Positions 29,950 through 31,015 of a DNA stretch of 64,000 nucleotides are shown in pieces. How positions within the stretch are numbered: the stretch's first letter is position 1; every line of letters starts with the position of its first letter. Under the pieces are notes generated by a model. The model was not told the origin of the DNA and did no database searches. It saw only the letters and a list, made by a program, of their open reading frames with translations. Location of the stretch: assembly GCF_020521555.1 (NCBI RefSeq), contig NZ_BPWA01000001.1, forward strand, positions 1,364,001 through 1,428,000, in the 5' to 3' direction. Made by a program: the position numbers and the translations under genes. The stretch is from Rodentibacter sp. JRC1 (GTDB lineage: Bacteria > Pseudomonadota > Gammaproteobacteria > Enterobacterales > Pasteurellaceae).

Positions 29950-31015
29950 CTATAACTGAACTTTAATAGCGCAGTATTTTTCCACAAATTCTATGATTTC
30001 AGGAGAAAATAAATGTTTTGATTTTTCCTTTAATTCATCAGAATATTTTAAATATTGATAACGATAGCCTATTATATATTGCACAGCCATAACCCGCGTA
30101 AGATTATGAGTAATTCGGCTGAGTTGTTCCTGTGAAAAATCCGTTGAGAATGGATTATTCTCTTTTTGTTTTATCAATCGGGTAAATTTATCTTTCTGTT
30201 TAGAAATTAATTGGTTAATTTTGAAAATATCAACCAATAGTGAATTATTCGTTATTGTATATATAATACTTTTTTCACGTTGGCGATAACTATAAAATAA
30301 TCTATCTATTTCTAATACCTTAATATTAGAATCCGTTAAAAGGAAGTTGATAGTAAATAACGCATCCTCAGCTTTCAAACCTTCAGGAAAAAATAACTTA
30401 TTTTCTTGTAAAGTTTTTGTTCGATATAAACCAAAGAAAACTGAAGGAAACCAATCACGACTTAATAAATTATGTAAAAATTGCTCGCCTGAACAAAGAT
30501 AGATTTGGTTCTCTGAAACAGAATTAGATTCTGGTGGACGTTTATGTATTTCCCCCGATTCCATATATTCCATTTGTATCTGTCCTTTTAAAAAATCAAC
30601 GTGGTATTGTTTGGCAAGTTCAATTAAAGAGGGAAAATTCGTTTCAATAATATAATCATCGGAATCTACAAAATAAATAAATTCTCCTTGGGCTAATTTT
30701 ATACCTTGATTGCGGGAAATAGATAAGCCTTTATTATGCTGGTTTATGACAGTGATAAAGAGATAACGCCTAAAATATTGCTGAATAATTAAATCGCTAG
30801 TATCTGTTGAACCATCATTAATAAGAATAATTTCTTTATTAACGGATTGGTGAACCAGACTTTCCAAACATTCAACTAAATAATCCTCGACATTATAGAC
30901 AGGAACAATAAAGGTTATATCATATTTGGCTGGCTGGCTGGCTGGCTGGCTGGCTGGCTGGCTGGCTGGCTGGCTGGCTGGCTGGCTGGCTGGCTGGCTG
31001 GATTGCGGTTGGCAT
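29950..31015 (-). CDS. Family 2 glycosyltransferase, phase-variable, currently out of frame
   Basis: Putative LOS glycosyltransferase (GT-A fold). The start is ATG at 31015, 5 bases after an AGGAG ribosome binding site. It reads M-P-T-A-I and then enters a tetranucleotide tract (30927-31001). Beyond the tract the catalytic frame gives KYDITFIVPVYNVEDYL, NDGSTDTS and the metal-binding VDSDDYI. Distance arithmetic puts the ATG and the catalytic frame one base out of register: the ATG frame stops at a TGA right after the tract, so this copy is OFF. Loss of one unit or gain of two would join them into about 353 residues. Inside the body only a TTG at 30867, within the GT domain, could start, and it would lack IVPVYN. 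It is next to a phosphoethanolamine transferase gene, which fits a role in variable LOS. Confidence 0.83.
30927..31001. repeat. (TGGC)18.75 contingency repeat
   Basis: A 75-bp uninterrupted tract of TGGC on the plus strand (CCAG/AGCC on the coding minus strand) at codons 6 onward of the glycosyltransferase gene. Slipped-strand changes in unit number would shift the frame. When translated, the tract encodes Ser-Gln-Pro-Ala repeats. Confidence 0.97.

What the first reader, a model, noticed from the sequence alone, without database searches (positions are those of the whole stretch)
29950..31015. Phase-variable glycosyltransferase in the OFF state
Seen: the only good start (ATG 31015, AGGAG in front) leads into 75 bp of TGGC repeats. 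The catalytic frame after the tract is 148 bases from the ATG, one base out of register, and the ATG frame meets TGA directly after the tract. Known: tetranucleotide slippage switches LOS genes in Haemophilus. Inferred: loss of one unit or gain of two units switches this gene ON and would change the LOS of single cells. The (AGCC)n unit differs from the CAAT, GCAA and GACA units I know from classical lic/lgt/lex loci.
Basis: partly seen in the sequence, partly recalled or inferred. Interest (0 to 1): 0.8.

Follow-up and report, generated by a model that had tools for sequence, protein, structure and literature searches.

The report
Phase-variable glycosyltransferase gene, switched off
A sugar-transfer gene in a bacterium of a rodent-associated genus starts with a stutter of a four-letter DNA repeat that puts it out of frame here, and some of its relatives carry other stutters at the same spot, the hallmark of a surface-sugar gene that cells flip on and off at random.

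Summary
On the minus strand an ATG (31015) behind AGGAG leads into 75 bp of pure AGCC repeat, then into a 325-codon GT2 glycosyltransferase frame one base out of register; the ATG frame stops at TGA just after the tract. The genus is Rodentibacter by inference, not Haemophilus. Comparison favours phase variation over a dead gene: of 54 matching stretches (own included) in 140 genomes of the family, 11 have a 4- or 7-base repeat just before the domain and 2 more are cut by a contig end there; 41 have neither. Units differ (AGCC, AGTC, CCAA, CAAT, GCAA, a 7-mer). As deposited, some copies are open and others closed. The gene is a 1.2-kb insert behind a conserved phosphoethanolamine-transferase gene; 11 of 14 congeners have the empty site. 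LOS as target is plausible but untested, and switching was not observed. AGCC is no new unit: it switches modA. This is a new member of a known kind; the modest novelty is the variety of repeat units at one site, and a second AGCC tract inside an FkbM methyltransferase gene.

The parts
29950..30927 (-). Catalytic frame of a family-2 glycosyltransferase (325 codons and stop), without a start codon in its own register ahead of the domain
   Evidence: PF00535 E 1.8e-32; DSDD and ED invariant in 11 aligned sequences; aligns over 3-325 with G131 at 50% identity
30927..31001 (-). Tetranucleotide tract, AGCC on the coding strand, 18.75 units; reads as a repeat of S, Q, P, A in every frame
   Evidence: 20 shuffles at most 14 bases
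31013..31015 (-). Likely start codon ATG; its frame closes after the tract
31021..31025 (-). AGGAG, likely ribosome-binding site
30920..30922 (-). TGA that ends the ATG frame behind the tract
29845..31062 (-). Approximate extent of the inserted segment compared with the empty site of relatives (boundaries judged by eye); it replaces the last codons of the upstream gene and leaves the shared terminator
   Evidence: 30% G+C without the tract against 41% for the window
31060..32613 (-). Upstream gene, 517 aa, EptA/CptA-like phosphoethanolamine transferase; found in 15 of 15 genomes of the genus; 44 nt before the glycosyltransferase ATG, so co-transcription is likely but not shown
29804..29836 (.). 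Terminator-like stem between the end of tsf and the end of the glycosyltransferase gene
   Evidence: a like stem stands at the empty site of the 11 relatives
28932..29783 (+). Flanking gene tsf (elongation factor Ts, named from recall of the sequence)

Best explanation
It is a simple-sequence contingency locus. A family-2 glycosyltransferase is translated from ATG 31015 through an AGCC tract; replication slippage changes the unit number, so that only one of three length classes puts the catalytic domain in frame. In the sequenced clone the tract is in a closed class (shown), so the enzyme is not made and only a short repetitive peptide would result (inferred). In open cells the enzyme, with a repetitive S-Q-P-A leader, would add one sugar to a surface glycan, most likely the LOS core that the upstream phosphoethanolamine transferase would also decorate (inferred, about 60%).
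For: Intact 325-codon GT2 frame with invariant DSDD and ED; both other frames stop at or before the fourth codon after the tract. Of 54 matching stretches in 39 of 140 genomes (own included), 11 have a repeat of 4 or 7 bases just before the domain and 2 more start at a contig end at the same codon. Of six genes whose leaders I examined, G117, G130 (from GTG) and one G089 paralogue are open, the own gene and the other G089 paralogue are closed, and G039:C12 is closed from its nearest ATG but open from a TTG further up. At the nrdG/cyd locus, genes with the same neighbours have 72 (G117), 14 (G130) and about 2.5 (G119) AGTC units. The genome's only other CA-purine-N tract, also AGCC, differs in unit number among orthologues: 15 own, about 19 G118, 7 G130. 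AGCC length switches ModA on and off by western blot in H. influenzae biogroup aegyptius (PMC10783040, passages).
Against: No change of this tract was seen. The one identical listed protein (P0001, contig of 2.43 Mb) begins with M where the own frame has an isoleucine inside the domain, so that copy may be closed too. No copy of this gene was seen at this site in the 14 congeners, and its nearest relative in the family is 50% identical. 41 of the 54 stretches have no repeat. Start assignments in G130 and G117 lack a clear ribosome site. Promoter-like matches in 29700-32800 are no more than in shuffles (14 against 10.8, sd 3.9), so co-transcription rests on spacing alone. LOS as substrate is untested.
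Confidence: 0.85

Rival explanations
1. A decaying acquired gene: the 1.2-kb A+T-rich insert came in with its tract and is now fixed in a closed state, a pseudogene in this lineage.
For: Orphan insert, not seen at the site in 14 of 14 congeners within the fetched flank; the identical protein P0001 also begins inside the domain.
Against: All 325 codons are open and the catalytic residues kept; the only lesion seen is the register of a perfect repeat, which slippage can reverse.
Confidence: 0.08
2. Assembly error in the tract length; the gene is really open.
For: Long tandem repeats are hard to assemble; 7 of 54 matching stretches begin within 80 bases of a contig end at this place.
Against: The own contig spans the tract in one 2.36-Mb piece. 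A length error would not remove the repeat or the switch.
Confidence: 0.05
3. The product starts downstream at TTG 30867 and is always made; the tract only tunes translation.
For: TTG 30867 is in frame.
Against: It leaves out VPVYN; F6, V8, P9 and Y11 there are nearly invariant in the alignment. Two tract-free homologues, G119 and G123:C131, have TTG or GTG before this part, behind AGGAGG or GAGGAG.
Confidence: 0.02

Closest known systems
Phase-variable LOS genes of Haemophilus influenzae (lic1A, lic2A, lic3A, lic3B, lex2A, lgtC, oafA)
   Same: Tetranucleotide tract in a surface-glycan gene; ON/OFF by unit number (PMC6479036, passages)
   Different: Units seen in the passages are GACA (lgtC), GCAA (lex2A, oafA) and CAAT (lic2A), here AGCC; other host genus; kinship of this GT2 enzyme to those enzymes was not measured
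modA of Haemophilus influenzae (phasevarion methyltransferase)
   Same: Same AGCC(n) unit inside the reading frame, shown to switch protein expression (PMC10783040, passages)
   Different: DNA methyltransferase, not a glycosyltransferase
PRK10073-type glycosyltransferase (NCBIfam NF007482; recalled as E. coli YibD/WaaH, which acts on the LPS core)
   Same: Best NCBIfam model, 156.7 bits over residues 4-278
   Different: Far under the curated cut-off of 423
   Same: Same domain with a repeat at the same place
   Different: Other repeat units, no shared chromosomal site, 37-50% identity in the matched part

Membership tests
Glycosyltransferase family 2 | GT2 domain above Pfam cut-off | tested here: met
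   PF00535 113 bits, cut-off 23.3
Glycosyltransferase family 2 | DxD-type metal site and downstream ED | tested here: met
   D88 S89 D90 D91 and E187 D188 invariant in 11 of 11 aligned (own plus 10 chosen from 120 listed hits); the meaning of these motifs is recalled
SSR contingency locus (translational phase variation) | Perfect repeat of unit length not divisible by 3 between start codon and domain | tested here: met
SSR contingency locus (translational phase variation) | Other registers end early | tested here: met
   both other frames stop at or before the fourth codon after the tract
SSR contingency locus (translational phase variation) | Unit number varies among isolates | tested here: inconclusive
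   varies among homologues and among orthologues of the second AGCC gene; no second isolate for this gene
SSR contingency locus (translational phase variation) | Protein present in one length class, absent in others | not testable with these tools
   needs expression data
H. influenzae LOS phase-variable loci | Unit CAAT, GCAA or GACA | tested here: not met
   AGCC here; units of four of the seven genes from passages of PMC6479036
H. influenzae LOS phase-variable loci | Changes LOS structure | not testable with these tools
   needs LOS analysis
PRK10073 / YibD-WaaH | NF007482 curated cut-off 423 bits | tested here: not met
   156.7 bits
modA | Type III DNA methyltransferase | tested here: not met
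   all three Pfam families found in the catalytic frame are glycosyltransferase families

The most novel reading that the evidence does not exclude
The codons just before the first strand of this GT2 subfamily are a cradle where contingency repeats are born and rewritten: short seeds (about 1.5 and 2.5 AGTC units in G123:C131 and G119) sit where relatives carry 14 to 72 units, and neighbouring branches of the tree carry different units that are mostly one substitution apart, the tetranucleotides all of the form CA-purine-N. One gene family would thus show seed, expansion and unit change of a phase-variation switch, and the FkbM gene would show the same in mid-protein.
Probability: 0.35. Interest if true: 0.6.

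Novelty: new member of a known kind. Interest (0 to 1): 0.42.

Why it matters
It extends repeat-driven switching of a probable surface-sugar gene to Rodentibacter, for which my searches found no report of phase variation. One species of the genus, R. pneumotropicus, is monitored in laboratory mice (abstract start of PMC6380038 in the listing). If single clones differ in surface sugars, colonisation studies and serological tests could be affected. The homologue series is a natural data set on how such repeats arise and change their unit.

Tried and rejected
Searching genome contigs by protein gave one distant Flavobacterium match only, so species names come from contig lengths. A DNA search with the insert (without the tract) found no close donor: best 71% over 286 bases in G131. 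The leads 'the tract is unique to this gene' and 'the unit is new' were rejected: a second AGCC tract exists and AGCC is the modA unit. Five-unit tracts of the patterns CMAW, AGWC and GHAA are absent from the own genome, and the CARN pattern (27 bases) matched only at the two AGCC tracts there; units outside these patterns were not searched. The tree does not place the own gene with support (open fork), so I make no claim about its donor or about the number of independent births. Repeat labels are clustered on the tree (10 changes, as low in 1 of 200 shuffles), but near-copies alone can do that. The chance estimate that five distinct units are all CARN (3e-5) assumes independence, which related genes do not have; it is only a hint. 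Structure prediction and fold search were not run. Papers: PMC10783040, PMC6479036 and PMC11868660 were seen as passages; all others as search listings (one search listed none).

Full report
Observation. On the minus strand the window holds ATG 31015 with AGGAG five bases ahead of it, a perfect 75-base AGCC tract at 31001-30927, and an open frame from 30927 to the stop at 29950. The tract is far beyond chance: the longest period-4 run in 20 mononucleotide shuffles of the window was 14 bases. The ATG frame ends at TGA 30922-30920, the third frame three codons after the tract, and the catalytic frame is closed upstream by TAA 31017-31015 with no start codon between that and the domain.

What the gene is. 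The catalytic frame matches PF00535 (1.8e-32), and the acid motifs DSDD and ED are invariant in 11 aligned sequences, the own one and 10 chosen from the 120 listed hits. The best NCBIfam model is a glycosyltransferase that I recall as E. coli YibD/WaaH, but well under its cut-off. Solved-structure matches are other GT2-type enzymes (20 sequences, best 3bcv, 4.3e-24).

Where it is. G121 in the same genus has contigs of 36,013 and 113,680 bases, the lengths given for the contigs of Rodentibacter myodis proteins P0002 and P0004, so the genus is Rodentibacter by inference; the species is not known. The upstream gene, a phosphoethanolamine-transferase homologue, was found in 15 of 15 genomes of the genus. 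In 11 of the 14 relatives it is followed directly by tsf; in the other three (G119, G123, G130) no tsf and no relative of this glycosyltransferase lies within the fetched flank of 1.3 to 1.5 kb, and other sequence follows. The gene is therefore an insert of about 1.2 kb, 30% G+C without the tract against 41% for the window, which replaces the last codons of the upstream gene and keeps the terminator. No other open frame of 80 codons or more lies inside it, so no transposase or integrase is seen. No close donor was found. That the two genes are co-transcribed rests on their spacing; promoter-like matches are no more than in shuffles.

Comparison. The protein search of 140 family genomes gave 54 matching stretches in 39 genomes, the own one included (E up to 1e-20). 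I examined the 5' side of all 54 (threshold three copies of a 4- to 8-base unit within 330 bases). Eleven have a repeat just before the domain: AGCC (own), AGTC (G131, G117, G125, G123:C35, G130), CCAA (G099:C16), CAAT (G121:C30), GCAA (G039:C12) and the 7-mer TCAGCAA (two genes of G089). Two more (G039:C36, G039:C47) begin at a contig end exactly at the codons YDITF. The other 41 have neither. All 13 lie among the 27 best-scoring hits. Seven of the 54 begin within 80 bases of a contig end, and all seven are among these 13, as expected if the repeat breaks short-read assemblies; where a tract runs into the contig end the visible unit number is a lower limit.

Open and closed forms. I examined the leaders of six genes. 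As deposited, the domain is open in G117 (72 units), in G130 (14 units, from GTG) and in one G089 paralogue, and closed in the own gene and the other G089 paralogue. G039:C12 is closed from its nearest ATG but open from a TTG 34 bases before the tract, so its state is unclear. The starts in G117 and G130 lack a clear ribosome site. Two homologues without a tract, G119 and G123:C131, have TTG or GTG behind AGGAGG or GAGGAG at the very place where others have the tract, with about 2.5 and 1.5 AGTC units there. Five genes (G117, G119, G123:C35, G125, G130) share the same neighbours, nrdG and cyd genes (named from recall of the sequences). In the tree of 33 sequences these two tract-free genes lie inside a starred group of six with four AGTC genes, and the branch with G131, G099:C16 and G121:C30 (support 94/96, just short of a star) has three different units. 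The own gene is not placed.

Second tract. The own genome has one other AGCC tract, 15 units (L009 4019-4078; CARN pattern). It lies in the middle of a methyltransferase gene: the piece after the tract matches FkbM PF05050 (3.1e-15, positions 88-172 of 173), and the piece before it has an LDCGANIG motif but no Pfam match of its own. Of the 7 relatives found besides the own genome among 140, G118 has about 19 units and an open frame of 286 codons, G130 has 7 units and a frame that closes, and the other five (G131, G128, G129, G087, G088) have no tract and are open. AGCC length thus varies between species of this genus.

Mechanism and limits. Shown: the repeat, the closed register, the intact domain, and the variety of homologues. 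Inferred: slippage in this strain, expression in the open class, transcription with the upstream gene, and LOS as the target. Against: no isolate with another length was seen, and P0001, the only identical protein listed, begins inside the domain.

Known work. AGCC(n) in modA switches ModA expression (PMC10783040, passages). Seven switching LOS genes of H. influenzae are named in PMC6479036, with GACA, GCAA and CAAT as the units in the passages seen. Searches for Rodentibacter with phase variation gave one paper, on periodontitis by its title; Pasteurella pneumotropica with phase variation gave none; Rodentibacter with lipooligosaccharide gave seven papers, seen as listings only; a broader repeat search held 3,524 papers, and none of the 12 listed mentions Rodentibacter. 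Searches for AGCC or tetranucleotide repeats with glycosyltransferases and Pasteurellaceae listed Haemophilus, Histophilus, Neisseria and other papers, not Rodentibacter by title. Only open-licence papers were searched.

Verdict. The finding is real and the core reading is right; it is a new member of a well-known kind, in a genus where I found no report of it. The added interest is the family series of repeat units at one site.

Noticed in passing
L009 3635-4481 (own genome C1 about 2071934-2072780): A second AGCC tract (15 units) sits inside, not at the start of, an FkbM-type methyltransferase gene; orthologues have 0 to about 19 units and open or closed frames.
   Followed up: partly
window 30927-31001 and loci L011-L013, L015, L016, L018, L050, L053: All five tetranucleotide units seen at this site have the form CA-purine-N on the coding strand; by inspection they differ mostly by single substitutions.
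   Followed up: partly
L025, L072 (G089): Two paralogues of the glycosyltransferase carry a seven-base repeat TCAGCAA, one with its nearest ATG in the catalytic frame and one not.
   Followed up: partly
G117:C1 1738312-1738414; G118:C1 2241486-2241552 and 2394225-2394307: Further long CAAA and CAGA (GACA-type) tracts in congeners; the genes were not examined.
   Followed up: no
L049 (G099:C43 9466-10392): A tract-free homologue has one TGA inside its frame as deposited.
   Followed up: no
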